Positions 5,474 through 45,955 of a stretch of 64,000 bases of DNA are shown in pieces (within the stretch, counting starts at the first letter, position 1; every line of letters begins with the position of its first letter). The notes beneath the pieces are model-generated. The model was not told the origin of the DNA, made no database searches, and saw only the letters and a program-made list of their open reading frames with translations. The DNA is taken from positions 14,124,593-14,188,592 of the forward strand of contig OZ020516.1 in assembly GCA_963971425.1 (NCBI GenBank), in the 5' to 3' direction. Source of the stretch: Bryoerythrophyllum caledonicum. Its lineage: Eukaryota; Streptophyta; Bryopsida; Pottiales; Pottiaceae. The translations under genes and the position numbers were made by a program.

Positions 5474-5671
<198 letters not shown>

Positions 5672-18006: not shown

Positions 18007-18095
18007 ATTGGACCAATGTAGCGATAGCACTAGTACTTAGAAAGTATAAACTCCAAAAAGTATTTATTTTTAATACTACATACAAACAATATTAT

Positions 18096-20408
18096 ATGCT
18101 ACATTCTATACACATCATTTACCATGTTGACTCCTTTGATACGATTCTCTTCTTTCTCCCTCTTCTACCTATATACCAAAAATATTTCACCTATCTCCCT
18201 TTTCCTTTATATTCTCCTTTCTTTATATACTCTTTCTTTACTTTTACCTATATATTCTTTTCTTTTCTTCTCATTACATATTCTTTTCTTTTTTATAATC
18301 TTTATATACTCTTTTCTTTACATACGACTATTGTTATATATTCTTTTTTCTTACATCCCTACCTTTTCCTTATCTTTATAAAATCATCTCTTATCTTTAC
18401 ATGTGGCTTATCTTCACTTATAAAACCTTATTGTCATACTTACTACCACCTTAAAAATTTTAACATTTCTTCGCCATTCCTCACTTGCAGATTCGTGCAT
18501 TGCTCAATTCCACCTGTAGCTCCTTGCATTAATTCCTATAACACCCTTTCACACAAATCAACCCACACTTGTGTCAAGGGTTTTAACATTATAAAGCCCC
18601 AAATTAGAACTTTACAACTTGCGCCTATATTACTATTAACTGTAGCAAGTACAAAAACACTTAATATAAAATACACATTAACTACCATTACACTCACCAT
18701 AAACATAATTACAAAGACAACAAGAAACACAAATAAAGACATATACATGCTTTCAAACAAACACAACCTCAACAACATAAAAATAATAAAAGCTCTAAAA
18801 TTCACACAAAAATCAAAAATTATGAAACACAATATCAAACCCACACATTATAAACTTCTACTACTTTTAGGCGGAGAATTAGAAATAAATCCGGGACCCA
18901 TGCCTAATATACTAAAAAGACACCCTACATCACATAAGAAAAATGCCAAAATATACTTTATACCAAAAACCATAAAATTACAACCGGAATATAGACACAT
19001 CGCTCAAACATTTGCACCTATTCTAAATACCACACATACATCACATCAACTTTACAACACCTCACATCCATATATTGCCCAATACATCCCACAAAAACCA
19101 AGTAAAACAAAAAACCTAAACTCCAAAAACACACCCCATAAAACAATTTATAGACTACACATACAGAACCTTAATATGTACACAGATATAATTTTTGAAA
19201 TGAACATTAAAACAAATACTAAAACGCATACTAATACAAACATACGAATGAACACTAATATAAACCCAAATACAAACACACACAAACACACAAATACTAA
19301 GACTAAAATTGGGATACATACTAATATAAACATAGGTATAAACTTTAAACCAAAAGCAAGTATACACACATTTATAATTACATATCATCAAAAGGAAAGG
19401 AATATTAAAATGGCTAAAAATAGGAAAATCAAGGAGAGTAAAAAGAGATATAATAAATTAAATAGGAAGAAGATAGATATTTATAAAATTTCAAAGGTTT
19501 CAAGTAGAGCAAGTAATATTAAAAATAAAAGAACAAAATCAGAGAGGATATGTAAGGAGAAAATAAAGGGTAAGGTAGAATACCACTATCAGAAGAATAC
19601 AAATAATAAGAACATAGCAACAAACAAAAATACTAAAAACAGAATATCCTTCCTAAGAGAATCAAAAATAAGGGATGGAAAATTAACCAAATTAGTAATG
19701 AGAAAGGAAAAATTTAGATTTAAAATAAGCAGAATAGATACTAAGAACAGAACATTACATACTAAAAATAGAAATTGGAATACAAATTATAGGGATAAAA
19801 GGAAAACTAATAGTAAATATAAATTTGATGAGAAAAGATTAAGATTAAAGAGTAGAAACTTGTTGAGAATGTGTAGAAGAAAAATAGAAGCGAGGATGGT
19901 GGAAAGGTATTCTTGTTGCGCGCCGTGCGGGCCAAAAATGGACTTACTAAAAATAGAAATTCTAATGAAAGTAAGAATATATATGAATCTTTTTGAAATA
20001 AATATCAATATATTTTTTCTGTATACTGGTACATATCTGTATAAATATCTATATACTAGTACGTATACAGATACGTATATTGTTGCGTATACTAATACAA
20101 ATACTAATATGTATACATATACATATACTGTTGCGTATACTACTACAAATACTAATATTTACACTAATACAAATACCAATATGAATACTAGTACGTATAC
20201 TAGTACGAATTATAACACGAATACTAACAAGGATATTGATACAAACTCCGAGACAAAAACCGAGGCATATACTAATACGAACATACGAATAAATACTAAT
20301 ATAAAAACAAATCAAAATACATATACACACACAAAGACAACAACACACCATCAACGTAACACGTACAGAGGAGAACGATGTCGTGTAAGGAAATGGTTTA
20401 ATATGTAA
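18096..20408 (+). CDS. Long low-complexity open frame in LINE B with an internal 2A-like peptide
   Basis: A 770-codon frame without stops. Residues about 15-110 come from T-rich repeats (TATATTCTTTTC-like) and read as consecutive hydrophobic segments rich in Phe, Tyr, Leu and Ile. An ATG at 18822 is followed by the 2A-like sequence and about 60 residues homologous to the ORF2 N-terminus (NILKRHPTSHKKNAKIYFIP). After about 19085 homology to ORF2 stops and the frame becomes Asn/Thr/Lys-rich (T-N-T-N repeats), then basic, then Tyr/Thr/Asn-rich. No endonuclease or RT motif follows. The openness may only reflect low complexity and A+T bias. I treat it as a rearranged ORF2 start fused to repeat-derived sequence. 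Confidence 0.35.
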   Translation: MLHSIHIIYHVDSFDTILFFLPLLPIYQKYFTYLPFPLYSPFFIYSFFTFTYIFFSFLLITYSFLFYNLYILFSLHTTIVIYSFFLHPYLFLIFIKSSLIFTCGLSSLIKPYCHTYYHLKNFNISSPFLTCRFVHCSIPPVAPCINSYNTLSHKSTHTCVKGFNIIKPQIRTLQLAPILLLTVASTKTLNIKYTLTTITLTINIITKTTRNTNKDIYMLSNKHNLNNIKIIKALKFTQKSKIMKHNIKPTHYKLLLLLGGELEINPGPMPNILKRHPTSHKKNAKIYFIPKTIKLQPEYRHIAQTFAPILNTTHTSHQLYNTSHPYIAQYIPQKPSKTKNLNSKNTPHKTIYRLHIQNLNMYTDIIFEMNIKTNTKTHTNTNIRMNTNINPNTNTHKHTNTKTKIGIHTNINIGINFKPKASIHTFIITYHQKERNIKMAKNRKIKESKKRYNKLNRKKIDIYKISKVSSRASNIKNKRTKSERICKEKIKGKVEYHYQKNTNNKNIATNKNTKNRISFLRESKIRDGKLTKLVMRKEKFRFKISRIDTKNRTLHTKNRNWNTNYRDKRKTNSKYKFDEKRLRLKSRNLLRMCRRKIEARMVERYSCCAPCGPKMDLLKIEILMKVRIYMNLFEININIFFLYTGTYLYKYLYTSTYTDTYIVAYTNTNTNMYTYTYTVAYTTTNTNIYTNTNTNMNTSTYTSTNYNTNTNKDIDTNSETKTEAYTNTNIRINTNIKTNQNTYTHTKTTTHHQRNTYRGERCRVRKWFNM
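18852..18899 (+). other. 2A-like peptide, LINE B upstream copy
   Basis: The codons read KLLLLLGGELEINPGP. The NPGP core is kept; the usual Asp of D-x-E is Glu. An in-frame ATG lies 10 codons upstream (18822), so the 2A would sit at the extreme N-terminus, as in trypanosome L1Tc-type elements. Confidence 0.65.
20020..20330 (+). repeat. A+T-rich TAC/ACT/AAT low-complexity repeats
   Basis: Irregular repetition of units such as ACTAATACAAATACTAATATG and TATACTAGTACGTATAC. Similar GTATAC/TACGTATA units recur at 22380-22640, so the two stretches flank the tRNA-like sequence and the unknown reading frame at 20.9 kb. Confidence 0.7.
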
Positions 20409-22760: not shown

Positions 22761-22881
22761 GAATCGTAACACATACATATACATACACACATATAAAAAC
22801 AGATAGATACAATGAAAAAAACACCAAGGTCACATACAAAAACAAAAAAACTTTAAACAAAACAAAAAACCCATCTACTAC

Positions 22882-22929
22882 AAACTACTAATATTAATCG
22901 GAGGAGACATAGAGACTAACCGAAGACCT
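22882..22929 (+). other. Degenerate 2A motif, LINE B ORF2
   Basis: The codons read KLLILIGGDIETNRRP: the D-I-E-T-N part is kept but NPGP has become NRRP, which should abolish ribosome skipping. It precedes the ATG at 22930 exactly as in LINE A. Confidence 0.75.
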
Positions 22930-25190
22930 ATGCGGAACGTATTAAAAAGACACCCCACTTCACACAAAAAGAATGCCAAAACTTATTTCATACCAAATAC
23001 CATAAAACGACAACCCGAATACGAACACATCGCCCAAAAATTTGCCCCCCTTTTCAAAACCACACATATATTACATCAACAACATAATAACGCATACCCA
23101 CATATCGCCACATATATAAACCAATACAACGAATATCCTCCATCTCACATTCTATATGCTCTAGCCATCACTATACACCCCAACATAGGCCTCTGCAATC
23201 AACTCCTAAATACACAAAATCAAATCATAACCCAATGGACCAATATACTCCTTTGTACCCTACATAATCTACAAAACCCCCTCGAAAGACACATTAGTGC
23301 CCCACATCCTCACACAACATTTCTCGAATCAAACTTAAACATCATAACCCACAACACATCGATAAACAAAGAATTATATGACTTTATACACAACCAAAAT
23401 ACACCCCCAGCAAATGACATGATAAAACAAAGATTTTCCTACCACCGGCACTCATAGTCATACAAGAAATAAAAATATCGGCCACAAAATCCACAAAATA
23501 TATATAAAGACTATTTCCCGACTACAAACTTATTTTCAATAACACACATGCCTTAACACGATGCATACAACAAAGAAGACCATATACACCGGGCCGGGGG
23601 GGACTCCTCACCCTCATACACAAAAAATATGCCTTTCCAGGCAATGTCAAAAAAATCCCCACCCCAATGAACATATCCCCATACCTCCAAATTTTGGAAA
23701 TCTCTAATCACCCACTACAATCATGGCTAATTCACCACATATACATGCCATCCCACCCCGAAGACATCAGACATACCGAGGACATCAAAACTAACATCAC
23801 CACCCATATTACCAACAATCCCAACCACAACCACATCTTATGTGGCGACTTCAATAGAGACATTGCCCTCATAGGTAGACAAAACGGAAACCAACACACA
23901 CCACCACAATTAATAGACCTTTAATGGAAAGAATTTACAGAAAACCTAAACTTTAATTACATTCCCACAAACACTACATGCTCCAGACAAGGAGGATACA
24001 ACTATAGAAACTGGAGCCTAATTGATGGATTCTACGTCCGTGCAACTAACTATACCACATTTACCTCCACAACAAATAATAACATTCATCTGAACTCCGA
24101 TCACTCACCTATACAACTCCACATCCCAAACAACACATTTATAAACCGTACGCCAACCAACACAAATAATGACCACATACGTATCCTCAACCCCATCCCA
24201 CAAAACAACATAGAATTATTCAACACAAAATTCTTTGAGGAAAACTCACTACGCATTGACTCCCTAATAAATGAATTGGAATCTAATAACCATCTTTCCC
24301 AAACACAATGGCAAGAAGCCTGTCACACCTTAGATACATTCATCAACAACATATCCAATACAATTGAACAAACTTGCAAAGCCCAACCCATACCACAAAT
24401 GACAAATCGAACATCACATCAAAGGGGATATTTACCCCGGAAACTATCTAAAACATGGAAACAACATCTAACCATTTACCACACCATACGGAAAACCGTA
24501 AGAATCGTAAATAACAACCCCCAATGGCGAAACCACCCTATTCTCAACGAACTTCAAAACCTTCAACACACACAAATCCCTAACCCACCCCCTATACACC
24601 TATCTCACGACACATGGATAAATAACATAGCATTAATTGCAAAAAATGCCAACACACAAGCCCGAAAAATCACCACCAAACATACCCAAGAAAACATTCG
24701 AAAAGCCATCTCCAAATACAGACAACTATATGAAACTAGCCCCAAGAAAGTAAACAGAAGAATATTCAAAAATATGGAGTCCCCACCACTAGACTGCATC
24801 ACCGACCAATATAACAATATACTAACTAGCCCAGAAGACATTGCAAACGAAATATTCAACCAACAAACAAAAAACAACACACCTACCGTAAACACATGCA
24901 ACTATCAACCGAACCACCGCACTACATGCACATGCGCAGTACGACAATATCCATGGCATGACCTAGATGGATTCACATTAGAAACAAGGGGAGACCTGGA
25001 AACTCCACTACACACATACTTTAATCAAGCTACATATGACACTTATCTACGTAACCTAGGAAATAATAAGGCCCTCGGACCGGACCGCATACCAAACTCT
25101 ATACTAAAAAATATGCCCCTAAGGTTCCACAAACTACTAACCCTCTTCTTCTCCCACTGCTATAAACAAAAACAAATCCCTACTTCATAG
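22930..25190 (+). pseudogene. LINE B ORF2, N-terminal part (APE endonuclease, start of RT)
   Basis: Homologous to LINE A ORF2. The first 175 codons (to 23457) are in one frame, the rest in another. Near 23440 a deletion of roughly 65 codons relative to LINE A removes the region containing the catalytic Asn motif TTWNASSLNN. Later APE motifs are present (ILCGDFNRDIALIG, SLIDGFYV, LNSDHSPI). In-frame stops occur near 23506, at 23922-23924 (CAA in LINE A) and at 25188-25190 (TGG position). The RT start region (NNKALGPDRIPNSILKNMP) is recognisable. Neither nuclease nor RT could be made from this copy. Confidence 0.8.
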
Positions 25191-27386: not shown

Positions 27387-27434
27387 GAAGATGGAAGGCA
27401 TCTTTTTACCATCCCAATCACTAGGCTCACATGG

Positions 27435-29738
27435 TTGTGGAACAAATACAATACTAAACTACAAACCCCTGCAAACATTGAACCAACAACCCAACCGTTC
27501 GAAACCGAAGTCATTTGGCTATACCAAAGATACAAATATAGATTACCAAAAAATAACCCTCTTAAGCTTACACAATATACACTACCCATACCTATACTTA
27601 ATTCACTAATCTCCACATTCAACATCCAACACTCATATTTCTCCTCCCCTGTCACATGCCCCACCAAACTCAACAAATTTTACTCCCCCTTTGAAAGAGA
27701 TAAAATATTCGGATCACTAGGCAAAGCCTTTGACCACAAATGGATAGGTAATGGTATGGCCCACCCACACAATGAAGAAGAAACACAACAAGCTCTACAT
27801 TGGGCCCGCCTCGCGGCCAAACATTACCCAAACCACACCTCCACCCTAATCATAACCCCAGACAAAAATTGGTACCAAAATCATAATCCACACTCGGGCC
27901 CCTTTCCCGATACACACATCATCACACTATTTGAAGCGGATTCAATAACATATGAAGAACCCACCATCCCACTAGATCTAAAAAAACCCAGAATTGAATC
28001 ATCCACTCTACAAATAATATGCATCCACCACCAAAACCATACTCTAGGCACACAAGAACAACTAGAAGAACTCTCCTCCATAGCAAAGACTCTAAACGTA
28101 CACCGGATACTCACAAAATTGGCCCCACCAACGCCAATGCAAACACTCGTCAACAAAAGCAAAAAATGGTCAAAACTACACTACAATAACAATACACTAA
28201 ACTACACCTTAACACCCCCACCCCTCCCGGAGTATCAAACTAACACCCCACCTAAATTTAACCCCGAATATAGCTACTATACTGATGGCTCCTTTAAACC
28301 ACCAGAACAAATTAGCCCGGGATCTTGGCGCAGAGAAAAAGCCGGTTATGGAATATACAACGCTACGAAAGAAATCAAACTAGCCAAAAGACTACATGGA
28401 CTGCAAAATATCCTCAGAGCAGAACTAATGGCCATCCACAAAACACTAGAAATCGTCTCAACAAAATACAACAATGAACCGGTGCACATATTTACAGATT
28501 GCATTAACGCACTATATTTATTAAACACCCAAATAACACATCCTACCCTCCATAATAGTCACCCCGACCGAATCATACTAGAATCAATGGTCCAAATGAT
28601 ACTAAAAAGAGAACAAATCACAACCCTCCACAAAGTCCGAGCCCATGCTAATATTGATGGCAATGAACAAGCGGATAAACTTGCAAAAGAAGGAAGAGAA
28701 AAATCACATAAAAATGCCAAAGACCCACATGAACACGCCCATGCCACCCCTTACTATTTCCAAAAAGAAGATTGGCCCTCCAAAGAAGACACCCCCGACA
28801 AAGGCCCGGTCAGATTCCTGAGCAAATACCTCAAAAAACAAGACCTACATAACAATCTTGACACAATCACAGACAACTTTCCTAACATAGAAAAGTGGAC
28901 TAACAACAATGACATAGACAATGAACTCTCTACAAATTTTTGGAAAAACCCCATCATCACCGATTCACAAATAACATGCCTTATCAAATTCCGTACCGGT
29001 CAATACATGGGAAATGCCCATAAACAACTCTTCTTTGGAATAGAAAGATTTCCATCCATAACATGCCCCATATGCCCCTCAACGGACCCCGACACATGGC
29101 TACATGTTCTACTCAAATGCCAAAACCACCACATACACTCCCTAATTGTTAAAAGACATAACAAAGCGGTATGGGAAGTCCGAAAACTAATCACCTCCTA
29201 CAATAAATCGAGATGTTTTATACTAATGAACGCCGACACTTTCAATAACAATCCACAAGAAAATACGGTCCCCCTGTGGCTACTCCCATGCTCATGTACG
29301 ACCCAAAGATGTCATTGCAACGCTAGGCTCAAACCGGATATACTTTGTGTCAAAGGTTTACCATACAATGACCCACCACCCGATAACGTCAACCAAGACT
29401 ACACCATTCAATTCATTGAATTCACATATTGCAACGATAGATTTTCCCCGGAAACAATCCAAAACAAAATAGACAAATACCAACCCCTTATTGACGACAT
29501 CATCGCCCTCGGATGGAATGTCGACCCCCTTATGGTAATCACATCCGGCGCTCGGGCCACCACCTTTACCGCGTCTATGAAAACTCTAGAAGACACCTTC
29601 AAGATACCCATTGAAACAATAAAAACATCCTTTAAAAACATTAACACCATAGCTATCCAACATGCCATGTCCATTCTTCTACATAAACGCAAAATCGAAA
29701 ACAACCAAGCCCTCCCCGATACACAGGACCCCCCCTAA
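27435..29738 (+). pseudogene. LINE B ORF2, C-terminal part: RNase H, CCHC, REL-like endonuclease
   Basis: An intact stretch of 767 codons in the ORF2 frame. RNase H (about 28,260-28,710): YYTDGSF (Asp), LRAELMAIHKTL (Glu), IFTDCINAL (Asp), and VRAHANIDGNEQADKLAKEG (His/Asn/Asp), all catalytic positions present. The CCHC knuckle is CPICPSTDPDTWLHVLLKC followed by VKRHN. A Cys cluster CSCTTQRCHC precedes KPD, then FIEFTYCNDRF and a Lys before KYQPL, the proposed REL catalytic set. Length and order match LINE A. This is the better preserved copy of the C-terminal half. Confidence 0.85.
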
Positions 29739-30029: not shown

Positions 30030-31323
30030 TTGGTGGGGTTTGGCAAATTTGACGCACGATCCCATGGTTGCAAATTATATTCACATTCTTGAAATCTTGT
30101 ACAAGATGCGAGAAGACAAGAGGTTACTGGGAATATAATTGTTAATTTCCATCAGATTTTTGAAAAAAATGATGTCATCATAAAAGAAAAAGCTCTCAAG
30201 AGCTGGGACATTTGACAAGTCCAAAGAACTTTTGCTTTGACAATCTATTATACTTGAGTTGAAATTAATACACAATTCATGTCTTAAGTTAAAAATACCG
30301 TATCCAAGGGTCGAATTTGGCACCCTAATGCTGAATATTTATTTATTTTTGAAAACAAAAAGTTCAGCAAATTCCTTAAAATATAAAATCTTCAAAATCT
30401 ACTTTATTACGGTATTAAAAATTTGACGTTTTTGGAAATTACTTTTTATTTTAAGTTGCAACTATTTAAAAAACATTTAAAGCCAAATCCGACCCTAGGA
30501 TACATAAGCATTCTAATTCAAAAAGTCAAACATTTTCACACATTGTCACACATTGCCAACCAAGATACTAAAAAGCTCTTTATTTTCTACATAGAACCTA
30601 TAGGTCTTCAAATTTTTACATTCTATATTTTTCACAACAATATGTGTTGTAAGCCTTCTTGTAGACCATTTGGATTATTATTCTAAACTATATTAAATTC
30701 ACAAGAAAGTAAAACGTGAATTGGCAATTTTTGAACCTCCACTCCTTGCACAATTGTTTTAAATATGCTACACTCCTATTTGACCTCTAAAAGTTGGAGT
30801 TCAAGGAACTAATATCATGTTTAACCCTTTAATGCTGAGCGACCCATTTCGTGTTGTTTTCGCAAGATAATCTTGATAACACTTGCTATTAGTCACCTCC
30901 ATGAATGACTTAGACTATGAAAAAGAGTTGGAAATCACCATATTCGTTATATTTGGAGATTTCCACAACTTTGAAAGGTATATGCTCCTTGAAATATAGA
31001 TTTTAACAGACACTCGTAGGAGCAAAGCACAGAGACAATGCATCCAAAATGCTATATTTTGTTGCTAGGAAGCACCAAAAAAGCCAAATGTCACAAAAAT
31101 CGCATCCGGAATCAAGCATATTAACATAAACCAAGCTATATTTTAAACATAATTAAGGAAAATCACTCGCAACATCATTTATTCCTAGGTAAAACACAAT
31201 TGTACTACCACTACTAAAATCATCTAGGGAAGTCCTCCATAAGCCTCCATATGCGACTTCAAAAATGCCCTTTGACGTTGACGAGTCCACGTTGCACCAT
31301 TCTCTTGAATTAGTGGATTTGTC
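30030..31323. other. Gene-free A+T-rich spacer with a dispersed repeat
   Basis: No coding region was recognised. Positions 30523-30828 are one copy of a dispersed repeat whose second copy is 45661-45955. Confidence 0.6.
30523..30828. repeat. Dispersed repeat of unknown family, copy 1
   Basis: Begins AAGTCAAACATTTTCACACA and shares long blocks with 45661-45955 (for example CAATTTTTGAACCTCCACTC). Overall similarity is roughly 75-80% by eye. It is noncoding, with no visible terminal repeats. Confidence 0.6.
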
Positions 31324-31425
31324 GTGTAAAGAAAGATCGATAACCACAACAGATCGAGAGTCCTAACCAATATCAAATAAACGAAAAACATACACTAAAA
31401 TAAGTATACGTAATACACCCTCAAG
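31324..31425. repeat. 102-bp direct repeat, left copy, beside the left LTR
   Basis: Nearly identical (about 3 to 4 differences) to 31791-31892. The two copies bracket the left LTR at a distance of 8 and 6 bp. No copy is present beside the right LTR. Confidence 0.85.
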
Positions 31426-31433
31426 GAATCACA

Positions 31434-31784
31434 TGTGTTTTCCACAAGAAGTCAAGCGACACGCACTCCACAAGGGGAGAATCAACGAGTGCAACTAAAG
31501 TAGAGAATGCGGAGCTTTCACTAATGATAAACCATCACTTTACAAGCAAAGAACTCACTAATCACTCTCTAACATCACTCACAAAGCTTGACTTGACAAA
31601 GACGTCAAGTCAAGGACGTGTGCGGCGCTATACGCAGACGCACGCAACCCTAAGTGGATGAAAATCATCCACGGATGAAAACGGTGCGCCGCCGTTCGTC
31701 CCTAAACACACGTAGATTAGTAACAAACTAATCTACGCTAAAATCTACGATACGGAGAGACCCTCGACGCCACGTCCCGTGACA
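31434..31784 (-). repeat. LTR, left copy (3' LTR of the minus-strand element)
   Basis: 351 bp, beginning TGTGTTTTCC and ending GTGACA on the + strand (TG..CA on both strands). It differs from 40961-41311 at 6 positions. It contains an 11-bp perfect inverted repeat at 31587-31614 (arms CTTGACTTGAC), a 10-bp one at 31712-31736 (arms GTAGATTAGT), and an 8-bp one with arms GTGGATGA. Confidence 0.88.
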
Positions 31785-31790
31785 GCTGTT

Positions 31791-31892
31791 GTGTAAAGAA
31801 AGATCGATAACCACAACAGATCGAGAGTCCTAACCAACATCAAATAAACGAAAAATATACACTAAAACAAGTATACGTAATACACCCTCAAG
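31791..31892. repeat. 102-bp direct repeat, right copy, between LTR and polypurine tract
   Basis: Second copy of 31324-31425. It lies between the left LTR and the polypurine tract, so the true 3' LTR may include it (about 459 bp). The right LTR would then lack this part. Confidence 0.85.
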
Positions 31893-31903
31893 TGCCCCCC
31901 CTA
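31893..31903 (-). promoter_or_regulatory. Candidate polypurine tract for plus-strand priming
   Basis: On the minus strand a run of seven G (31895-31901) with an adjacent C lies between the end of the coding region and the LTR/102-bp repeat, the expected place of a polypurine tract. Confidence 0.5.
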
Positions 31904-32207
31904 GCGGATAAAGAGACCCTCTATCCAGCTAGAATCAAACAACACTAATAAGACTAAACGCCACGGTGATGTTGCTGCAACAACTGTACGCATCCAGCCA
32001 AAGATGTCGCCGTCATCGGATCAATAAACATACGAAGAAGTAACAAAGAGATGGTAGGCCGGGTGCAATGTGAGCCCCATCTTTAATCGCCTTAGGCAAT
32101 TTTATTGCCAATCCCTTGGTCAATCTCCACGTTGCCTATCCCTGAACCGAAACCAGGAACTCCAACTGGATGGCAACGCACCACACAATGACAAGTCTAT
32201 GAGGAAT

Positions 32208-33425
32208 TCAAGCCGTTTCATCGGGTGAAACGTGACTCGAAGACCTCCGACAACGAGGGCAAGTCCAACCCCCGGACGGTAGAGTAGAGAGAGGCGGCGT
32301 CAAGCAAGCCATATGCCAACCACGCTGGCAATGGTCACAAAGCAACATAGTAGCCGCACCCTTCTTCTCACCACACACAAAATACGGAAGACCCTGTGGC
32401 ACAACGGCCAACTCAGGATGCACGGAGCCATCAATGGGCAAATGGCAGGGCGCGCAGTTTTTGGAGTGCTCCCGACACTCCCGGCCATCTTTGCCTTCCA
32501 GCAACAAGATGCCACTGGACAACACATCCTTCACACGAAGAATGGTGCGCCCCGCCTTGACATCTAACGTCGTAGGCGCCTCACGTTGCAAATAAACGTA
32601 ATCTCCAATGGAGAAACGCCGCAACTGAGGTCGATAAGCGCCACTACAAATGCGAGCGTACCGTAATGTGTCGCGGTGCTCAGCAATGGATAAATTCTCC
32701 ATGGCCATTGGCATGGCCCGCTTGAAGAACTCCGCTTGGTCACGCAGACACTGGATCCAGACCTCTAGATCATCCAAGTCCACAACTGGGGCCAACTTCT
32801 CCCATACAGAACTGGGTAGAATCGGCTCCCGTCCGTACAACAACTGATACGGACTGAAAGCGGCCAAAGAGGCCTGCCGGCTAAACCGGTATCCCACGGC
32901 GATCCATGGTATCATCAGATCCCAATCACGGTGGCCACCCTTAAGTAATCCATACTTCCGTAGTCCACGCTTGACGGTCTGAACCACACGCTCCGCCAAA
33001 CCGTCCGCTTCCGGATGATCTCTAGAAATGGTACGGTGGTCAATCAAAGCCTTGGTGCAGAAAGCCTCAAAAGCACCAAGGAACTCACGCCCTTGGTCAG
33101 TCAACACCTCAGCTGGGGCTCCAAAGCGAGCGAGCACCCGGTCAAGGAATGCCATGGCCGCCAACTCCGAGGAGTTTTGTGGTAATGCCACAAGCTCAAT
33201 CCACTTGCTGAAGTGTTCCACCATCACCAACACGTACTTGGCTCCACGTGGGGTGACAACAAGTGGCCCGGCAAAATCCAGAGAGCGACAGTAGCCCAAA
33301 CCCATGATGGGCAAAGGCTGCAACTGTGGTGACAAGGTGTTGAAGCTGGATCTGACCCGATCACAGACTTCACACCGTGAAACGTACGTGGCAACCTGCT
33401 GATAATGCCGGTCCACCAATATTGG
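32208..33425 (-). pseudogene. Integrase with GPY/F-like module and C-terminal PHD finger
   Basis: A 403-residue frame, shifted by 1 nt relative to RT/RNase H (junction near 33425). Numbering from 33419: the zinc-binding end CEVC at 16-19; the catalytic triad is D48 (SLDFAGPL), D108 (LTDQGREF) and E143 (ADGLAERVV), with 34 residues between the last two. A GPY/F-like SH3 region is at about 267-320 (RRFSIGDYVYLQRE). A PHD finger follows at 346-390: C349, C361, C364, H369, C372, C387, C390 with the typical LLCDHC, GWHMAC, PPL and GWTCPRC spacing. The first zinc ligand is replaced by Tyr346 (TAT, one change from Cys). PHD fingers read histone H3 tails in other proteins; here it replaces the chromodomain found in many plant gypsy integrases and could guide integration (inference). 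Confidence 0.85.
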
Positions 33426-35350
33426 CTGCGCAACATCGAATGAGTCCGCCGCACGCCAAAATGACCAAGGTCTTCGTGTACCTGCCGTACCAACGAAGCC
33501 CTCTGATCCGGTCTGGGAACTATGCGCCTAGTTCCATCTGGCCACAACCGAAATAGAAGGCTGTTCTCCCAACGGAACCTCGTTATCCGGTGTCCAACTC
33601 GATCGCGCTCCATGGCCGAAAGAGCGGGCGGAAGTGTGCCATATTGCAGCTTGTGCAAGACAGGAACGTCTTCCCACACGTCGCTAACAACCCGGGCCTT
33701 GTCCGGTTCCTCATCCGCTGCCATATCAGGCAACGTCGATGTGGATCCAGACATCAATGTGAGGTAGGCTGCTGGATGCCACCCCGGGACTGACTCCCTG
33801 TCACAGTCCCCATGCCACCTGGCACCAGTCAAATCCTCCTCCGATGGACTTGGATTGCGAGATAGACCATCCGCATCCAAGTTCGTGATGCCCGCTCGGT
33901 GTACAACCTCAAAATCATACTCCTGGAGCAACAAAGCCCACCTGGCAAGCTTGCCAGTAAGCTTGTCAAACTCCATGAGCCACTTCAAAGGTTGGTGGTC
34001 GGTCACCAAAGTAAAACGCTGCCCATACAAGTAGGGCCTAAAATGAGCTATGGCCCAAACTGCGGCCAAGGCCTCCCCCTCATAGGACGAATAGTTGGAC
34101 TCCGCGTTGTTGTTGCTCCTAGAAGCAAACGCCACAACGTACTCCCGTCCCTCATCATCCTTTTGAGTCAACACGGCTCCCAATCCTACTGCACTCCAAT
34201 CTGTGTGCAAGTGGAAAGGCCGTGTAGCATCTGGACGCCGCAGTACAGGCGCTGAACCGAGCTTCAGCTTTAAAGTAGCAAACGCCTGCTGCTGCTCCCG
34301 TCCCCAAGTCCATGGGTGATCCTTCCCCGTGAGAATAGTCAACGGCTTGGCAATCAAACTGAAGTTCTTGACAAACCGGCGATAGTAATTCGCCAGGCCA
34401 AGAAAAGCTCTGAGCCGTGACACGTCGATTGGGGCTGGGATCTTCTGCAACGCGTCAACCTTCGCCTGCTGCACGCCAAGACCTCCTGGAACAATCATAT
34501 GTCCCAAGTATGGCAACCGGTCATGGAAGAATTTGCATTTGCCATGGTGCAAGCGCAATCCCCACTGCCGTAGCCTCTCGAACACCGCCTGAAGATGTCT
34601 CACATGCTCCTGTGGGCTGCTACTAAAAATGATAACATCATCAATGTAGCATCGGGCAAACGGTAAACCGGTCAACACCCGGTCCATTACCCTCTGAAAC
34701 TCAGCAGGTGCGTTCTTGAGGCCAAATGGAAGAAACTTCCAATGGTAGAGTTGATCTCTCCCATCCAGATCAACTCCCTAGAACGCGGTCTTCACCCGGT
34801 CTTCCACCATCAATGGTAACTGGTGGTAACCGGACCGCAAATCCAGAGTACTAAATACTCTGGCGTGTCCCACCGCATCAAACAACTCCTCTGGCGTGGG
34901 CATGGGATACCGATCCGACTTGGTCTTACGATTGACTGGTCTATAATCCCCACACATCCGCTTCTCCGTCCAGTTGCCAAAGATGTCCTTCTTCGATGGC
35001 ATCACCGTGGCACAAGCGTACTCGCCGTTGGAGAGCTCAATCAAACTGGCGGCCAACAACTCCTGACAACGAGTTTGAACCCCAACTTTCTCAGAGAGAC
35101 TGAGCTTGTACGGTCGTCGGAAGATCGGGTGGTCATCCTCCAACTGAATGTGAATCGGTTTGCCTCTATAGCCCTCCAAATCATGGAGACTAAAGGCAAA
35201 ACAACTACGATACGAACGTATAAACGCTCGTACCCTTCGTGCCTCGGCACCGGTAAGATGTGGCCCCAAATCCAAAGGCCAATCATCAAACTCCGTGGTC
35301 TCCTTCTTCACCGTAGAAGACTCACCGCGTACCGGCACGGCCGGTGATTG
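33425..35350 (-). pseudogene. Ty3/gypsy reverse transcriptase and RNase H
   Basis: One frame with a TAG at 34780-34778. RT motifs: KKDIFGNWTEKRMCGDYRPVN, STLDLRSGYHQ, FGLKNAPAEFQRVMDRVL, and YIDD (CYIDDVIIF) just after position 34687; then LGHMIVPGGL and AFLGLANYYRRFVKNFS. The stop falls in TAF-x-GVD, where gypsy RTs have Trp (TGG to TAG). RNase H: LHTDWSAVGLGAVL (Asp), YEGEALAAVWA (Glu), LVTDHQPLKWL (Asp), NLDADGLSRNP (Asp). The H-x-H zinc region of integrase (LGHFGVRRTHSMLRSQYWW) is at the 3' end before the frameshift. It follows the methyltransferase after a TAG at 35353-35351. Confidence 0.85.
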
Positions 35351-36625
35351 CTACTTAGTAGTAGAGAGGGCATTAATGCCCCCAGACCCCTCACTCACAG
35401 AATCTACAGAAAATCCCGTGTCGTGATGATAAAACTGGGAAAAGATATCTCGAGCATCCTCATGGCCAAAGTCCTCTGCCAAGGCTGCAAAGACACGCTG
35501 AGCACGAAGCTCCTCAGCTGCATGTCTCTTCAATCGAAAAAGCAACTCCGCTTCCTCGATCTCTGTGAGATGTGGCACCGCTGCCCCCTGACCATCAGAG
35601 TCTGCCCCTAGCACGCGTGGATGGTCACTCGAACGGCGTTGAGCGGCAAAACAGAGGCCACATATCCAAACAAGGGTGTTGAGGTCAATGGCTTGACCCA
35701 ACAAATAACGGCGTTGGCCCTCAGAGATATCCGGTGCGGCGGTGGTGCCTGTCAAAAAGCCCATCGCCCGCTCCCTCTCATCGGCAGAAGGCTCCTCGAA
35801 AGTTTGGGAAGAAGAATCCCAAACCATGCCCGGACCGCGTGACCTGAAGGCAAAAGAGCCTGGATAGCACATCAAAGTGGGAAATGCCCCCCGAGTGAAA
35901 CCAACGCGGTTGACCACCGCCAATGGTGGCTCATCATCCTTCGTAACCTCCGTGGAAACACGGTGGTCGTCTAAAATGTCATCGACCTCACGGCGCACGG
36001 GCCGTTGCACTTGAGCAAGTGCAGAAGTGAGCATCGTGGATGATGCCATGTTGGTCCAAATCCAACGTGGCCGATGGGCGTACGATCCCAACGCTGCGGC
36101 ATCAACAAACGTAGGGGGACCAAGAACGTGATGGATGTACGCCCCATCCTCACGCACTTTTGTCCGTGTATCCCCCAATGGGGGTACATTCTCAAAAATG
36201 TACCCCGGTGGTGTCGATTGGTGGGTAATCCACCACTGGACGAGCCTGAGCAAATCCGCAAAGAGACCCTACCGTGGATCATCCAAGCTACGCCCACTTC
36301 CCGCCCGTGAATGGCCTTGGCAAGGCCATCCGGCAATCACCAAGTCCACGTGACCTAACCGGCAAAGATCATCGTCACTGATCAACGTCACATCACGTGG
36401 CAACTTACCAAAACACCCTCGAATCGCAGAAGATGGTAACTGCTCTAGATACAACGCCAGAAGACGCTGAATGTGATGGTGAGCGGCACGGTTGGCTGCA
36501 AAGCCACTATCCACGTGGATATACCGTGGTACCTTGAGCCCGGCCTCCAACACAGCCGCGAGCCCCGTACCGATACCGGCAAATAACTCCACAAGGGTAA
36601 TACCCTCATCCGGTGGTCGCCACCG
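35351..36625 (-). pseudogene. Cytosine-5 DNA methyltransferase domain embedded in pol
   Basis: All key C5-methyltransferase motifs occur in order. Motif I is LVELFAGIGTGL (about 36595-36560, AdoMet binding). Motif IV is AGWPCQGHSRAG (catalytic Cys codon 36322-36320). Motif VI is FENVPP (Glu codon 36193-36191). Motif VIII is HRPRW, followed by a variable region. A motif IX/X-like C-terminal end shows ERERAMGFLTGT, SEGQRRYLLGQAIDLNTLVW. One TAG (36271-36269) lies between motifs IV and VI. The domain sits in the same frame between protease and RT, so it would be made as part of the polyprotein. It has no separate chromatin-targeting domain, unlike plant MET1, CMT or DRM. A function in methylating the element's own DNA is a hypothesis. 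About 75 residues after motif X form a helical linker to RT. Confidence 0.9.
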
Positions 36626-36849
36626 AATAGTACAAGCCAATAACGGAGTGGAAGAGTTCACTGAAGGCAGTGGAGCATCAAGAGCATCCACGATCTCTCC
36701 ACTCCGACGAGTGAGCTCCAACGGTGTCCCCCACGACGGAAGCGCATCCTTGCAATGACGGGCAGGGATCACCAATGGTGGGTGCTCGCGTGAATCCTCC
36801 ACCACAGACATAAATGCATATGTCTCCTCCAAAAGTGAAGAAGCACACG

Positions 36850-37297
36850 GCAAGTCTGATGCCAGAGCACTACACCCAAACATAGCATCTGTCGTTGAAG
36901 TCACCGCGCTAGCTGCGAAGACTACGGGGATGAGCTCCTTCCTGCCATCACCGGCAGACCACCCTGGCCTAATCCAAGCTTCCTCCGTCCAGTTATCCAC
37001 CCCAAATCCAAGTGGATATAGTGCCTGCTGGCCCACCAAAATATCGTAGTTGATGGCGCCACTAACAGCGCACTGAAGGGAGACATGGGAGAACAATGGA
37101 CCAGATCCCACGCCAAACATCAACTGCAACGGATGTCGGGTGTAGCCCATGGCCTTCTCCGTGCCCCCAACCGATGTAACAATCGTGAATGGACAAGGCT
37201 CGAGGTCCAAAGCACCAAGACCCAAATCCTAGGCTAGCTGCTTGCCAATCATCACTGGCTGAGCCCCAGAATCCAACATAACGCGTAGGGGGGTAGC
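36850..37297 (-). pseudogene. Aspartic protease (retropepsin) domain
   Basis: In the gag frame directly after TGA 37300-37298. The active site is VMLDSGAQPVMIG (Asp codon at 37273-37271). The body has YDILVGQQALYPLGFGVD, corresponding to the conserved ILG/D region of gypsy proteases. A TAG at 37231-37229 interrupts it. About 80 residues of uncertain nature separate it from the methyltransferase. Confidence 0.75.
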
Positions 37298-39220
37298 TCA
37301 AGTGGAGTTGCCATCCGTACGGCCTACCACCATGACTCCATCGTCATTCACCAAACGTACCACCCCTGGACGTACACTGCGTCGCTCCCGTGCCGACCGG
37401 GCTGCAACGTCAGACAAATAAGCCACTCCAGAGATCAAGGCCCGATCCCCGGACGACTGCTCCATAGGTGTGGAAGTGGCATTGGCCTCAAATGCGGAAA
37501 TAGCCTCCGCCGCCAACTTAGCCCGCATTGCCCCCAAATCCTCCTCAGTGGGTGGAGCGGTCACTGCCTGTGACACCTCCAACGACGGAATGGGCACCTT
37601 GCCTTCCAACATACTACCCGCCAAGTGGAATATACCGGATGGTTGAAAATCCGGTGTGAGAAAGTCCACACCAGCAAACACCGGCAATTGCAACACCTTA
37701 TACGCCAAGGTGTGTGCAACATCTCCAGGACTGGAAGAAACCGGTGGGACCGGAATCGAAGTGGGAGCGGCAGTAGAAGTAGCCGCATCCGCGATGCTGA
37801 ACGAAAGAAATAGCCGGGACTGACCAATGTGGTCCGGCAAACCCGCATGGCGTGAACGACCGCTCCTACCCGGCACAGTGGAAGAGGGTGCCACCGCCTG
37901 TCTAATGGTCTGAGCACGAGTGGCAACCGCTGCCAACACCTCTCCCGAAGTGCCATATAAGTAGCGATCTAAAGCTGAAGATGAGCCCTGACCCGTCACC
38001 ACAGGCCGTGTGTTTGCCACTTGCCCCAAAGAAGCCATCGCGCTCATCTGCTTCTTCAGCTCCGCCAATTCGGATTGAAGTGACTTCACGGCATCCGATC
38101 CAACAACCGAAGATCCTGGGCGCTTCTCCGGGTGAAGAGAAAAGCAGTTCTTATCATTGTGGCCAGGCTTGCCACAGTGAGAGCATGTCACAGGCTTCTT
38201 CCCCTTGCCCCCAGTCTTCTCCGTAAGCTTGGCAGCCTCGGTCTTGGGCTTGGCCTTCCTCGCCACTGCCTCCTTCTTCTTCGGACAATTGGGGTCCCCC
38301 TTGGTGTGACCGGCCTCTCCACAAGCCCAACAATGCACAACCTTTTCAGGTTGTGCTTCTGCCAAGCTACCGGTCGCCGTAGCAAGCTTCTTAGGCTTCG
38401 GAGCATCCATGAGCGACGTGACCAAGTCTGTGGTCTCGCTCACACCCAACGCCCGGTCAAGCGCTTCCACCTCGGCGAACGCCTGAGCCAAGGTCGCGTT
38501 GCCGTCGTACCGGAAGAGCAAATGCAGACTGATCAACTCTACCATCCACTTGTCGAGCTTGGAGATAAAAATCTTCACAAGTTGGCGCTCCGTGAAGACA
38601 TCACCAGCCTCCGCCGCCAACCGCGCCAACCGTGTGTACATGGTGCGTGGCATGTCTTCCTTCTCACGGCGGAAATCCTGGATGCGGTGCATCTGATCGC
38701 GCCGAAACCCCCCGTACTCCACCTCCAGATGCGCCATGAACTGCGCCAAAGGATCGAAGGCTGGCGGGTTGCCAACCGCCACCAATGCCGCACGTGTGGC
38801 TACACCCAAACGAGACATGGCCCTCATGCCAGCTCGTTCGCCCACAATGGCAACACCCTTGTCCTTGGAGTCCTCACCGAGGAAACTCTCCTCCTCCATG
38901 GGCTCCTCGGTGGAAGTCGAGAGTTGGGCAACCGCATTCTCCTTGAGTGCAGTGACCAACTCCACACGCTGACGCCAATACTCCTCAATCGGGCGCAACT
39001 CTGCCTCGTGCTGCGTGGTCCACCTCCCATATGTCTGAAGTGCCTCCAGCTCCAAATGCTGGGGCAAAAGCTCGAACGCGTACCAATCGTTGAACGACGG
39101 CGTCCGCTGGCGCTTCTCCTTCATCCAAGTTTGGAATCGGAGACGCCAATCGGGTAGGGAGATGCCCCCAGCCCGTCCCGAGAACCTGTCTCGCACGACA
39201 TGACGGTGATCGTCCTCCAT
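37298..39220 (-). CDS. Gag protein with two CCHC zinc knuckles
   Basis: The open frame starts at 39403; the first ATG is at 39220 (62nd codon), and a GTG or other upstream start cannot be excluded. The middle part resembles a gypsy capsid (FDPLAQFMAHLEVEYGGF, RRDQMHRIQDFRRE, MYTRLARLAAEAGD). The first knuckle (CWACGEAGH..C) has six residues before the last Cys instead of four. The second, CSHCGKPGHNDKNC, is canonical. A Lys-rich linker lies between them. The tail after the knuckles (about 280 residues, Ser/Ala/Pro-rich) leads to the protease. Gag packages element RNA; the knuckles bind nucleic acid. This frame ends at TGA at the gag/protease border; in related elements that could be a recoding point, but here it may just be a mutation. 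Confidence 0.75.
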   Translation of the reverse strand: MEDDHRHVVRDRFSGRAGGISLPDWRLRFQTWMKEKRQRTPSFNDWYAFELLPQHLELEALQTYGRWTTQHEAELRPIEEYWRQRVELVTALKENAVAQLSTSTEEPMEEESFLGEDSKDKGVAIVGERAGMRAMSRLGVATRAALVAVGNPPAFDPLAQFMAHLEVEYGGFRRDQMHRIQDFRREKEDMPRTMYTRLARLAAEAGDVFTERQLVKIFISKLDKWMVELISLHLLFRYDGNATLAQAFAEVEALDRALGVSETTDLVTSLMDAPKPKKLATATGSLAEAQPEKVVHCWACGEAGHTKGDPNCPKKKEAVARKAKPKTEAAKLTEKTGGKGKKPVTCSHCGKPGHNDKNCFSLHPEKRPGSSVVGSDAVKSLQSELAELKKQMSAMASLGQVANTRPVVTGQGSSSALDRYLYGTSGEVLAAVATRAQTIRQAVAPSSTVPGRSGRSRHAGLPDHIGQSRLFLSFSIADAATSTAAPTSIPVPPVSSSPGDVAHTLAYKVLQLPVFAGVDFLTPDFQPSGIFHLAGSMLEGKVPIPSLEVSQAVTAPPTEEDLGAMRAKLAAEAISAFEANATSTPMEQSSGDRALISGVAYLSDVAARSARERRSVRPGVVRLVNDDGVMVVGRTDGNST

Positions 39221-40960
39221 GTCGTCAAACGTGCCCACACTCCAGACCCGAAGCCTACGGTCGGTATCCAACGCCGAAACAGGCTCAAAAGCCTCGTCGG
39301 TATCCGACCCTGGCCAAAGTCTGTGGTGGAAGCACTCTCCGAGTGGTTTGGTGAGGGAGAGCGGTAATACCGACTCCGGGTACTCACCATAAATAAAAAC
39401 CACCTCGGGATCTATCTACGGGTACTATCTAAAGGGTAAGGGTACGAACGGGCAACCTGCACCTGCAAAATCATCAAGCTGTGTGGATCACCGGTCATCA
39501 CCTCCGGCTACCACAGGTCCAACCACATCCCCCCACATAGAAAGGTGTTGCCGGCCATAAATCCGACTTCACCCCTACGGTACCCTATCACAAACTGGAA
39601 CAACAAGAAATGGGGCCACTGGAAAACACCGGCAACAAGCCCGCAACACGGGGGAGGTACCGCACAAGAATCCAGAAATTCAAAATCGGATCCTCTCCCC
39701 CAACAACATAAAAGCAGGAAAATGAAGAGGCAGCGCCACTGGCACACGCCTGCAGTGGATGCCTCAAAGTCGCAAAACCTGCAAATCAAAGAGAAACACT
39801 ACAAAGTGTTCTCCCCTAACGTCTAAAACTATGGGAGTAGTGGAGATTGACCGTGGTGTTTAAAAACACTCTCCATCCAATGAAATCACATACATTGGTG
39901 GATAATCACGACAAACGCCAAACTAATGCTAAAATTAGGTCAAATGGCGGAAACCCTAACTATAAGCATAAAATGTCACTCACATCCGAGTAACAATGCC
40001 TTTGAAATCTACTCCCAAAGTTTAGCACTATTTTAAAATTTTTTTTTTTTTTAAAGATCACAAAACATGTGATTGTTTTCGGACGTCCCGAAAACTCGCC
40101 AAATTTATTTTTTTGGCAAACTATAAATTTTTAACATCACTGATCTTATATTTTGACAACGAATTCAAATCCGAAGTCGAAAGTCAAAAGTATGAAATAT
40201 TGCAAAAGTTAAAATTTTAAGGTCCAACTCCAGGGATGATCTGAAGTTTGGCCCGAAAACTAGCGGAATAGGGGTCCTGCGGCACTCTTTAAAGTACCTG
40301 TGGGGAATTGAGATCACCTGCCGCGTTTGGAGCCCCGCCCCTTGCCCGTGGGGCCCCCTTTACCGCTGGCCTTACGCCCGTGTCCCGCGTTGAAGTCTTC
40401 TCGCGGTGGATTTCCTTGCTCGAATCTCAGGCTCCCTTCGAATAGCCCGCTACAGGCTGTCCCGTTGGCCTCCAGCTGCCCACTGTCACGACCCCCAGGT
40501 CAACTCCCTTAATCCCGGGCACTGTCCCCACCTGCGATTCTGTCTCGATCCTCGATTCTGCGGGGCCCGCAGCCTATTTCCGCGGCTTCCACGCCCACAA
40601 TCAACCCTCGCGGTTACACACTCGTGCGTTTCTTTTAACCCTTGTTCCCGGAGATACTCGGCGTTCCCAGGCGTTCCCAACAGCTGACTCGGGCTGCACA
40701 GCCTCTTCCTCCGTAGGCACAGGCACCTTCTACCACGAACTCCAGCACAGAAACTCACTCACTCCAGAACATGCTCTTCAAAGAGCTCTTCAAAAACTCC
40801 AAGACTAAACTCTTAGCGAAATCTCACGGAAGTTTGCGTACTAGCCTCTAATAATTGTAACCCACTCTTCCTCTACTATTTCCATTTTCTACAAAACACT
40901 TTAATACAAAAATGGTAGAAAACTAAGAAGATATGAGGGGTCTTTGTCAAGTGAATCGCA
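39221..40960 (-). other. Leader between right LTR and gag, with a G+C-rich segment
   Basis: About 1.7 kb. Positions 40320-40760 are strongly G+C-rich (for example GGAGCCCCGCCCCTTGCCC) compared with flanking A+T-rich DNA. Open frames exist on both strands but none is recognisable. A primer binding site beside the LTR (40960 leftwards) could not be matched to a tRNA by eye. Confidence 0.4.
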
Positions 40961-41311
40961 TGTGTTTTCCACAAGAAGTCAAGCAACACGCACTCCACAA
41001 GGGGAGAATCAACGAGTGCAACTAAAGTAGAGAATGCGGAGCTTTCACTAATGATAAACCATCACTTTACAAGCAAAGAACTCACTAATCACTCTCTAAC
41101 CTCACTCACAAAGCTTGACTTGACAAAGACGTCAAGTCAAGGACGTGTGCGGCGCTATACGCACACGCAAGCAACCCTAAGTGGATGAAAACCATCCATG
41201 GATGAAAACGGTGCGCCGCCGTTCGTCCCTAAACACACGTAGATTAGTAACAAACTAATCTACGCTAAAATCTACGATACGGAGAGACCCTCGACGCCAC
41301 GTCCCGTGACA
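40961..41311 (-). repeat. LTR, right copy (5' LTR of the minus-strand element)
   Basis: 351 bp, 6 differences from 31434-31784, with the same TG..CA ends. It lacks the adjoining 102-bp repeat found beside the left copy. The 11-bp and 10-bp internal inverted repeats are conserved; the 8-bp one has decayed by two substitutions. Confidence 0.88.
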
Positions 41312-45660: not shown

Positions 45661-45955
45661 AAGTCAAACATTTTCACACAATTAAAGCAAGCGAGGATAA
45701 AAAGTTCATCTTTTCTACATAAAACCCAGAGATCTTCATTTTTTTCACTTTTTGTTTTTTCCACAACCATATGTGGTGTAGACCTTCTTATTGACCGTTT
45801 AGATTATCATTCTAAAACATATTAAAATTTAAAAAAAATAAATCGTGAATTGACAATTTTTGAACCTCCACTCTTTGCACACTTGTTTGGAATATGCTTC
45901 ACCCCTTCTATACCTCTAAAAATTGTTGAATAAGGAATTAACATCATGCTCAACA
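45661..45955. repeat. Dispersed repeat of unknown family, copy 2
   Basis: Homologous to 30523-30828, in the same orientation; see that entry. Confidence 0.6.

What the first reader, a model, noticed from the sequence alone, without database searches (positions are those of the whole stretch)
31434..41311. Gypsy retrotransposon with a built-in DNA methyltransferase
A C5 methyltransferase with motifs I, IV (PCQ), VI (ENV), VIII and IX/X-like lies in frame between protease and RT. Retrotransposons normally are targets of methylation; carrying the writer could let the element methylate its own cDNA or nearby DNA. Such capture has been reported for charophytes and dinoflagellates; this copy shows where the domain sits (protease-methyltransferase-RT).
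Basis: partly seen in the sequence, partly recalled or inferred. Interest (0 to 1): 0.85.

Follow-up and report, generated by a model that had tools for sequence, protein, structure and literature searches.

The report
Jumping gene carrying DNA methylation enzyme
A retrotransposon of an unidentified, probably plant or algal, genome carries its own DNA-methylating enzyme of the DNMT3 type, apparently made together with its coat protein; this is a damaged copy of a widespread family whose first member was described in 2018, and its unusual end repeats suggest that it inserts itself from a circular DNA form.

Summary
On the minus strand, 41311-31320, lies a 9,992-bp Ty3/Gypsy-type element with TG..CA ends and a 4-bp target duplication. 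One frame encodes gag, protease, a DNMT3-type cytosine methyltransferase (MT), RT and RNase H; integrase and a PHD finger follow after a frameshift. The kind is known: KnitGypsy-Dnmt3 of Klebsormidium (2018). The domain is no one-off: 36 proteins match it, six from Marchantia, and the relative L030, open in these frames, has 94% MT identity; MT dN/dS is 0.09.

New here: (1) The stop between MT and RT (UAG CAA UCA, a type I readthrough motif) is shared with L030, and the five nearest proteins end at the same residue. MT is thus probably made on the Gag side, Pol by readthrough. (2) Repeats are split, A-internal-B-A-B. A self-priming PBS (covarying with L030) and a PPT define an LTR of B+A; the A2/B2 joint equals those ends joined, while the outer ends lie at a palindrome inside that LTR. 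This fits integration from a two-LTR circle. (3) MT has two positions in the family. (4) It occurs in liverworts.

Methylation of its own cDNA is inferred; CpG is not depleted. This copy is dead.

The parts
31320..41311 (-). whole element, 9,992 bp; outer ends TGTC...GACA; 4-bp TSD AATC at 41315-41312 and 31319-31316
   Evidence: self-BLAST and end inspection; DNA
40953..41311 (-). repeat A1 (5' end)
   Evidence: 98% identical to A2
41156..41159 (-). TATA, 29 nt upstream of the predicted RNA start at 41130
   Evidence: same spacing in L030
41118..41130 (-). predicted start of R: 13 nt complementary to the primer-binding site
40940..40952 (-). self-priming primer-binding site directly after A1
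   Evidence: 13-nt exact complement in A1; 0 of 3000 control segments reach 13; compensatory change in L030
37301..39415 (-). gag frame with two CCHC-like knuckles (38338-38261, 38188-38144); start of gag disrupted
   Evidence: Pfam zinc knuckle only weak (E 0.045 and 0.087, under the cut-offs); frame and likeness to relatives
37151..37291 (-). aspartic protease (stretch matched)
   Evidence: Pfam PF13650 E 0.0013, under its cut-off; relatives P0021, P0023, P0027 pass it at the same place in the order
35648..36604 (-). DNMT3-type cytosine methyltransferase core (TAG at 36271-36269 inside it)
   Evidence: model and fold of the L030 counterpart 70, 78, 79; dN/dS 0.088 against L030
35354..35647 (-). 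C-terminal tail of the MT (98 residues, partly helical, low model confidence)
35345..35353 (-). conserved stop UAG CAA UCA between MT and RT (type I readthrough motif)
   Evidence: identical in L030; P0002-P0006 end at the same residue
33917..35350 (-). reverse transcriptase and RNase H (TAG at 34780-34778 inside RT)
   Evidence: Pfam
32490..33511 (-). integrase (ends approximate): zinc-binding domain from 33511, frameshift near 33400, rve core 33257-33012
   Evidence: Pfam
32250..32378 (-). PHD finger at the end of integrase
   Evidence: Pfam PF00628 E 1.5e-10; PDB neighbours
31893..31902 (-). polypurine tract directly before B1
   Evidence: identical in L030
31787..31892 (-). repeat B1
   Evidence: 96% identical to B2
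31781..31790 (-). B1|A2 joint, palindrome-like (AACAGCTGTC; GACAGCTGTC in L030); proposed integrase site
31426..31784 (-). repeat A2
31320..31425 (-). repeat B2; the A2/B2 joint (31426/31425) equals the two reverse-transcription ends joined

Best explanation
This is a degraded copy of a Ty3/Gypsy-type retrotransposon whose Gag-side polyprotein carries a DNMT3-type cytosine methyltransferase. Shown from sequence: the gene order gag-PR-MT-stop-RT-RH-IN-PHD; MT under purifying selection between this lineage and L030; a conserved UAG in readthrough context between MT and RT; split A/B/A/B repeats; a self-priming primer-binding site; a polypurine tract; outer TG..CA ends with a 4-bp target duplication. 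Inferred: most ribosomes stop at the UAG and make Gag-PR-MT, a minority read through to make RT-RH-IN-PHD, so MT is packed into the particle in Gag-like amounts. The RNA starts in A1 and primes itself, giving linear DNA BA-internal-BA. The two ends are joined to a two-LTR circle, and the integrase opens that circle at the palindromic B|A site, giving A-internal-B-A-B. In the particle or the nucleus the MT meets this cDNA and most likely methylates it, which may protect or mark the circular intermediate. The last step is the least certain.
For: Domains. DNMT3 type: a profile of 13 chosen family MTs against the PDB gives DNMT3A 6e-24, then DRM 1.5e-12, HaeIII 4e-9, DNMT2 5e-8, DNMT1 0.5; fold. 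Selection: dN/dS of the MT core 0.088 (bootstrap 95% 0.05-0.14) between window and L030. Recoding: UAG CAA UCA identical in L030, where the upstream and pol frames are open, in the same frame, and pol has no ATG before the RT motifs; the 5 nearest proteins (P0002-P0006) end 98 residues after the MT core, as in the window; 21 of the 36 proteins are PR-MT and end before RT; TAG followed by CARYYA is 3 of 1769 TAGs on both strands of the window, this one included. Life cycle: PBS complement 13 nt, 0 of 3000 controls; compensatory change and equal TATA spacing in L030; the A2/B2 joint equals the ends set by PBS and PPT. Family: MT and RT trees both recover the five-member PR-MT-RT clade (99/99 and 100/99). 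PMC5890265 reports the same repeat layout in Klebsormidium. A relative has a Dam-type adenine methyltransferase in the same slot (P0264), which hints that a DNA methyltransferase is what the slot is for.
Against: No activity data. CpG is not depleted (0.86 in the element, 0.82 in L030, 0.63-0.69 in the flanks), and C-to-T differences between the two copies are only slightly more frequent at CpG (10%) than at CpT (8.5%). The isolated Klebsormidium MT did not methylate yeast DNA (inconclusive by its authors). Two-LTR circles are usually seen as dead ends in retroviruses (recalled). Only one integrated copy and one circular contig were read as DNA. P0159 and P0160 pol proteins begin with a methionine near the same place, so some relatives may express pol otherwise. 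Six of the 36 proteins run from MT on into RT or RNase H in one protein (P0021, P0022, P0023, P0026, P0027, P0028), among them two Marchantia gene models. The Dam domain of P0264 has HPPW where a DPPY-like motif would be expected (motif recalled).
Confidence: 0.6

Rival explanations
1. The MT acts on host chromatin: brought by the PHD-bearing integrase to the target, it methylates neighbouring DNA and keeps the new copy quiet or hidden.
For: The PHD finger's PDB neighbours include CHD4, PHF21A, KAT6, DPF, UHRF1, AIRE and BAZ2B (60 of 93 rows seen), many of them readers of unmodified H3 (recalled). In RT-RH-MT-IN members MT lies next to integrase.
Against: In the window's clade MT is on the other side of the conserved stop from integrase and PHD, so most MT would not be attached to them. 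Both positions put MT in the particle (inference).
Confidence: 0.2
2. The MT modifies RNA (the element's own transcript or a tRNA), like DNMT2.
For: Some enzymes of this fold act on RNA; the authors of PMC5890265 raise this for the LINE enzyme.
Against: The profile is far nearer DNMT3 than DNMT2 (88 against 35 bits).
Confidence: 0.07
3. The MT is mainly a structural or nucleic-acid-binding part of Gag, with activity unimportant.
For: Gag-side position; yeast test negative for the Klebsormidium enzyme; a few relatives have altered motifs (P0022 without PCQ, P0033 ENA, P0037 ENT and no motif I).
Against: The catalytic Cys, ENV and RxR columns are invariant in 13 chosen diverse members.
Confidence: 0.1
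4. A one-off insertion of a host DNMT gene into this one copy.
For: None found.
Against: 36 proteins match the region, 219 match the MT profile, MT and RT trees agree on the PR-MT-RT clade, dN/dS 0.088.
Confidence: 0.01
5. The A-B-A-B ends are an accident: an ordinary element whose LTR tandem arose by recombination, or a rare circle insertion.
For: Only one integrated copy was read here. L030 shows one B and one A joined, which an ordinary LTR element would give too.
Against: TGTC..GACA ends with a 4-bp target duplication lie exactly at the B|A joint; the palindrome, PBS and PPT are kept in L030; the same layout is the published family layout in Klebsormidium.
Confidence: 0.15

Closest known systems
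KnitGypsy-Dnmt3 of Klebsormidium nitens (de Mendoza et al. 2018, PMC5890265)
   Same: Gypsy-type domains; Dnmt3-type, non-rearranged MT; repeats laid out as in DIRS, A-coding-B-A-B; MT under purifying selection. The K. nitens protein P0205 has the order PR-MT-RT-RH-IN.
   Different: P0205 is 47% identical to the pol of L030 over 88%. It has MT and RT in one protein, whereas here a conserved UAG separates them. No PHD was found in P0205, which is a partial protein. The paper's main text has no occurrence of 'PHD' or 'circular'; its supplements were not read.
SymbioDIRS-Dnmt3 (dinoflagellates; same paper)
   Same: Dnmt3-type MT; A-B-A-B repeats.
   Different: Tyrosine recombinase instead of rve integrase; the authors treat the charophyte case as an independent capture.
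Tf1/Sushi group (self-primed Ty3/Gypsy)
   Same: Primer-binding site complementary to the transcript's own start; self-priming is also reported for plant Tcn1 elements (PMC6317226 passages).
   Different: No MT and ordinary LTRs (recalled); here a PHD finger ends the integrase.
Gammaretrovirus gag-UAG-pol readthrough
   Same: UAG between Gag side and Pol side (recalled).
   Different: Here protease and MT lie before the stop, and the context is the CARYYA (tobacco-mosaic type) motif (recalled).

Membership tests
Ty3/Gypsy (Metaviridae-type) retrotransposon | Order PR-RT-RNase H-integrase with rve core | tested here: met
   (protease match weak in the window, clear in relatives)
Ty3/Gypsy (Metaviridae-type) retrotransposon | Two complete identical LTRs at the ends | tested here: not met
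   5' end A only, 3' end B-A-B
Ty3/Gypsy (Metaviridae-type) retrotransposon | TG..CA ends and short (4-6 bp) target duplication | tested here: met
   TGTC..GACA, AATC
KnitGypsy-Dnmt3 kind | Gypsy domains plus Dnmt3-type MT plus A-B-A-B repeats | tested here: met
KnitGypsy-Dnmt3 kind | MT in the Pol open reading frame with RT | tested here: inconclusive
   same frame, but a conserved UAG lies between them
DIRS/Ngaro order | Tyrosine recombinase | tested here: not met
   rve integrase found instead; no recombinase in the Pfam scan of the six main frames
DIRS/Ngaro order | Split direct repeats A-B-A-B | tested here: met
DNMT3 family (MT domain) | Best sequence and fold match DNMT3; canonical motif order | tested here: met
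   no tree with host DNMT3s was made
DNMT3 family (MT domain) | ADD/PWWP regulatory domains | tested here: not met
   no such Pfam match in the gag-PR-MT frames
DRM | Rearranged motif order (VI-X before I-V; recalled) | tested here: not met
   order I-IV-VI-VIII-X
DNMT1/MET1 | Closest sequence match DNMT1 | tested here: not met
   DNMT1 E 0.5 against DNMT3A 6e-24
CMT | Closest match CMT; chromodomain within the catalytic domain (recalled) | tested here: inconclusive
   CMT not among the 60 of 68 PDB rows shown
Type I stop-codon readthrough | UAG CARYYA between two frames, conserved | tested here: met
   DNA of 2 elements; protein ends of 5 more
Type I stop-codon readthrough | Measured readthrough | not testable with these tools
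   needs a reporter

The most novel reading that the evidence does not exclude
A family of rve-integrase retrotransposons whose reverse-transcription ends and integration ends are circularly permuted. Every copy must pass through a two-LTR circle that the integrase opens at an internal palindromic site. The element carries a DNMT3-type methyltransferase, made in Gag-like amounts, to protect or mark that circle.
Probability: 0.4. Interest if true: 0.85.

Novelty: new variant of a known kind. Interest (0 to 1): 0.6.

Why it matters
Transposons are normally the targets of cytosine methylation. A lineage that keeps a methyltransferase under selection, places it on the Gag side of a conserved stop and occurs from green algae to liverworts makes it testable what the writer does for the element. 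[quoted passage not shown] the Marchantia and Calypogeia proteins found here contradict this for liverworts. The permuted repeats give a concrete prediction about integration of circles by an rve integrase.

Tried and rejected
Host identity: not found. The genome search did not complete; the three protein searches went to the element, so no host gene was searched. The best pol identities to liverwort proteins (Calypogeia 65%, Riccia 64%, Marchantia 66%, over 40-70% of the query; two other liverwort rows 46% and 54%) exceed those to Klebsormidium (41-48%) and Closterium (34-51%) among the 120 rows listed, but this does not name the host.

More DNA copies: the window's MT against viral contigs gave no relative; the family profile gave 29 loci of 47% identity or less over part of the MT, not followed up; the PPT/B1 motif gave 0; genome contigs gave 10 loci, one of them an element (L030), the other nine (25-39% identity) not followed up.

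CpG depletion as a trace of self-methylation: not seen. RNA structure after the stop: z -2.6 in the window, not tested in L030, so not used. NCBIfam gave only a sub-threshold dcm match (37.5 bits against a cut-off of 100.65).

TAG as a sense codon (changed code) was considered: TGA also interrupts the frame, and L030 is open under the standard code apart from the one TAG, so rejected.

Rows dropped: P0025 was left out of the 36-row MT alignment; the trees use the 13 rows with long enough RT and an MT, so P0022, P0026, P0028 and P0033 fell out; one search measured 18 hand-picked proteins (P0002-P0018, P0020).

Papers: PMC5890265 parts 1-2 of 7, section 9 and passages; PMC6338049 passages; PMC6317226 passages; supplements none; other papers only as search listings.
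Full report
Observation. The window's minus strand carries one Ty3/Gypsy-type element. Self-comparison gives two pairs of repeats: A (366 bp aligned, 97.8%) at 41312-40947 and 31785-31421, and B (106 bp, 96.2%) at 31892-31787 and 31425-31320. The outer ends read TGTC...GACA and are flanked by AATC on both sides, which sets the element at 41311-31320. The frame from 39415 to 33224 holds gag, protease, methyltransferase, RT and RNase H (zinc knuckles and protease are weak in Pfam and rest on relatives). It is interrupted by TGA 37300-37298 and by TAG at 37231, 36271, 35353 and 34780. Integrase continues in another frame after a shift near 33400 and ends in a PHD finger.

Family and distribution. 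36 proteins match the MT region (only 7,989 candidates scored). They include six Marchantia polymorpha proteins, Cymbomonas tetramitiformis, Chlamydomonas eustigma and many metagenome proteins. A second search adds two Calypogeia fissa proteins among the 120 of 219 rows listed; a third, with pol, adds Klebsormidium nitens and Closterium proteins with MT (120 of 2,890 rows listed). Two arrangements exist: PR-MT-RT-RH-IN (window, Marchantia, Klebsormidium, Closterium) and RT-RH-MT-IN-PHD (Cymbomonas and metagenome proteins). Of the 36, 21 are PR-MT and stop before RT, 6 run from MT into RT or RNase H, and 9 have MT after RT or RNase H. Of the 120 pol rows, 29 hold an MT in the same protein, 25 before RT and 4 between RNase H and integrase; for the rest MT may be in a separate upstream protein or absent. 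P0273 runs from gag to integrase with a PHD finger but no MT, so relatives without MT exist, although there the PHD lies before the integrase. P0264 has a Dam-type adenine methyltransferase (PF05869, E 6.5e-11) between protease and RT, the very slot of the DNMT3-type MT; its motif reads HPPW and its activity is open. MT and RT trees of the 13 members with both domains long enough agree on the five-member PR-MT-RT clade (99/99 and 100/99) and on a four-member RT-RH-MT-IN clade; deeper forks are open. One capture followed by relocation, or two captures, cannot be told apart here.

A relative as DNA. L030 (CADCWO010000201.1) is filed under a cyanobacterial MAG but is an element of this family, presumably a mis-binned eukaryotic sequence. 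Its ends overlap by 127 bp, so it closes to a circle, which for a multicopy element is probably an assembly collapse. It is 88% identical to the window element over 7.4 kb, and its MT is 94% identical. Between the two, dN/dS is 0.18 for gag, 0.12 for PR and linker, 0.09 for the MT core (bootstrap 0.05-0.14), 0.30 for the MT tail, 0.03 for RT-RH and 0.05 for IN-PHD. The MT is thus kept by selection, though less tightly than RT.

The stop between MT and RT. In L030 the gag-PR-MT frame is open to TAG 3489-3491, then pol is open for 1,047 codons in the same frame, with no ATG before the RT motifs; the context AAG TAG CAA TCA is identical to the window's. The nearest proteins P0002-P0006 end 98 residues after the MT core, exactly where the window's TAG lies; all 18 proteins picked for this measurement end before RT, with tails of 80-171 residues. 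UAG CARYYA is the type I readthrough motif (recalled); 3 of 1,769 TAGs in the window have it, this one included. Readthrough is therefore the likely route to Pol, which puts MT on the abundant Gag side. Against this: pol proteins P0159 and P0160 start with Met close to the same point, and six of the 36 proteins run on into RT or RNase H, among them two Marchantia gene models.

The repeats and the cycle. Directly after A1 lies ACTTGACAAAGAC; its exact complement lies in A at 41130, 29 nt after a TATA. None of 3,000 random 30-nt segments of the element reached a 13-nt match with A1 (longest 10). In L030 the site reads ACTTGACAAAGAT and its partner has the matching change, with the same TATA spacing. 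This is self-priming as in Tf1/Sushi (PMC6317226 passages). Directly before B1 lies AGGGGGGGCA, identical in L030. These two marks define an LTR that starts CTTGAGGG and ends GATTC, that is B then A. Joining those ends gives GATTC|CTTGAGGG, which is exactly the A2/B2 joint in the genome (31426/31425). The integrated ends, however, lie inside that LTR at B|A, a palindrome GACAGCTGTC in L030 (AACAGCTGTC in the window), with TG..CA ends and a target duplication. The simplest reading is that linear BA-internal-BA DNA closes to a two-LTR circle, which integrase opens at B|A. PMC5890265 reports the same layout for the Klebsormidium family and calls it that of a DIRS element with Gypsy domains; the parts I read give no mechanism.

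What the MT does. Its place in Gag-PR-MT, or between RNase H and integrase in the other clade, would put it in the particle with the cDNA in both (inference). I therefore favour action on the element's own cDNA over action on host chromatin (rival, with the PHD finger; neighbours), RNA or a structural role; the Dam domain in the same slot of P0264 leans the same way. CpG observed/expected shows no depletion, and the C-to-T excess at CpG is slight; the published yeast test of the Klebsormidium enzyme was negative but inconclusive.

Known or new. The kind is published (PMC5890265). Searches for KnitGypsy (one paper), Marchantia with retrotransposon, DNMT3 and Gypsy (two, seen as listings), Marchantia with DNMT3, reverse transcriptase and cytosine methyltransferase (none), split direct repeats with Gypsy and integrase (five listings), readthrough with gag-pol, retrotransposon and algae (ten listings), a PHD finger in Gypsy integrase of algae (none) and circles with self-priming (ten listings, one of them followed in passages) did not show the readthrough, permuted-cycle or liverwort points. 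The library holds only open-licence papers and most hits were seen as listings, so this is no proof of absence.

Noticed in passing
window 8485-11712 (+) and 27387-29738 (+): Two LINE copies carry a PCIF1-like domain (PF12237, E 1e-10 and 1.5e-10), in the first copy between RT and RNase H, so a second transposon type in this window has a methyltransferase-like domain. In a weak alignment to human PCIF1 (E 0.21) the NPPF motif (catalytic, recalled) is replaced by AHPH. A paper search on PCIF1 with retrotransposons gave none.
   Followed up: partly
protein P0264 (metagenome), residues 535-653: A related Gypsy-type polyprotein has a Dam-type adenine methyltransferase domain between protease and RT, where the window's element has its DNMT3-type domain; motif HPPW.
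   Followed up: partly
window 5342-5962, 17919-20408 and 22816-23457 (+): 2A-like motifs in or near the LINE copies (GDIETNPGP, GELEINPGP, and a decayed GDIETNRRP) (the motif name is recalled).
   Followed up: no
L030 (CADCWO010000201.1) and protein P0039: Retrotransposon sequences of this family are filed in public databases as bacterial: one in a cyanobacterial MAG, one as a DNA cytosine methyltransferase of Candidatus Obscuribacterales.
   Followed up: partly
window 31320-41311 against flanks: The element is 53% GC while the flanks are 41-43%, which might point to a recent or horizontal arrival.
   Followed up: no
window 55389-57149 (-): Fragments look like a broken hAT-type transposase by eye, but the two pieces scanned have no Pfam match at 1e-3.
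   Followed up: no
window 30613-30825 and 45742-45954: A 213-bp direct repeat (79%) lies on both sides of the element, 15 kb apart; A and B have no match there.
   Followed up: no
P0161: A 66%-identical pol carries a Trinity transcript name in EukProt, so a relative seems to be transcribed somewhere.
   Followed up: no
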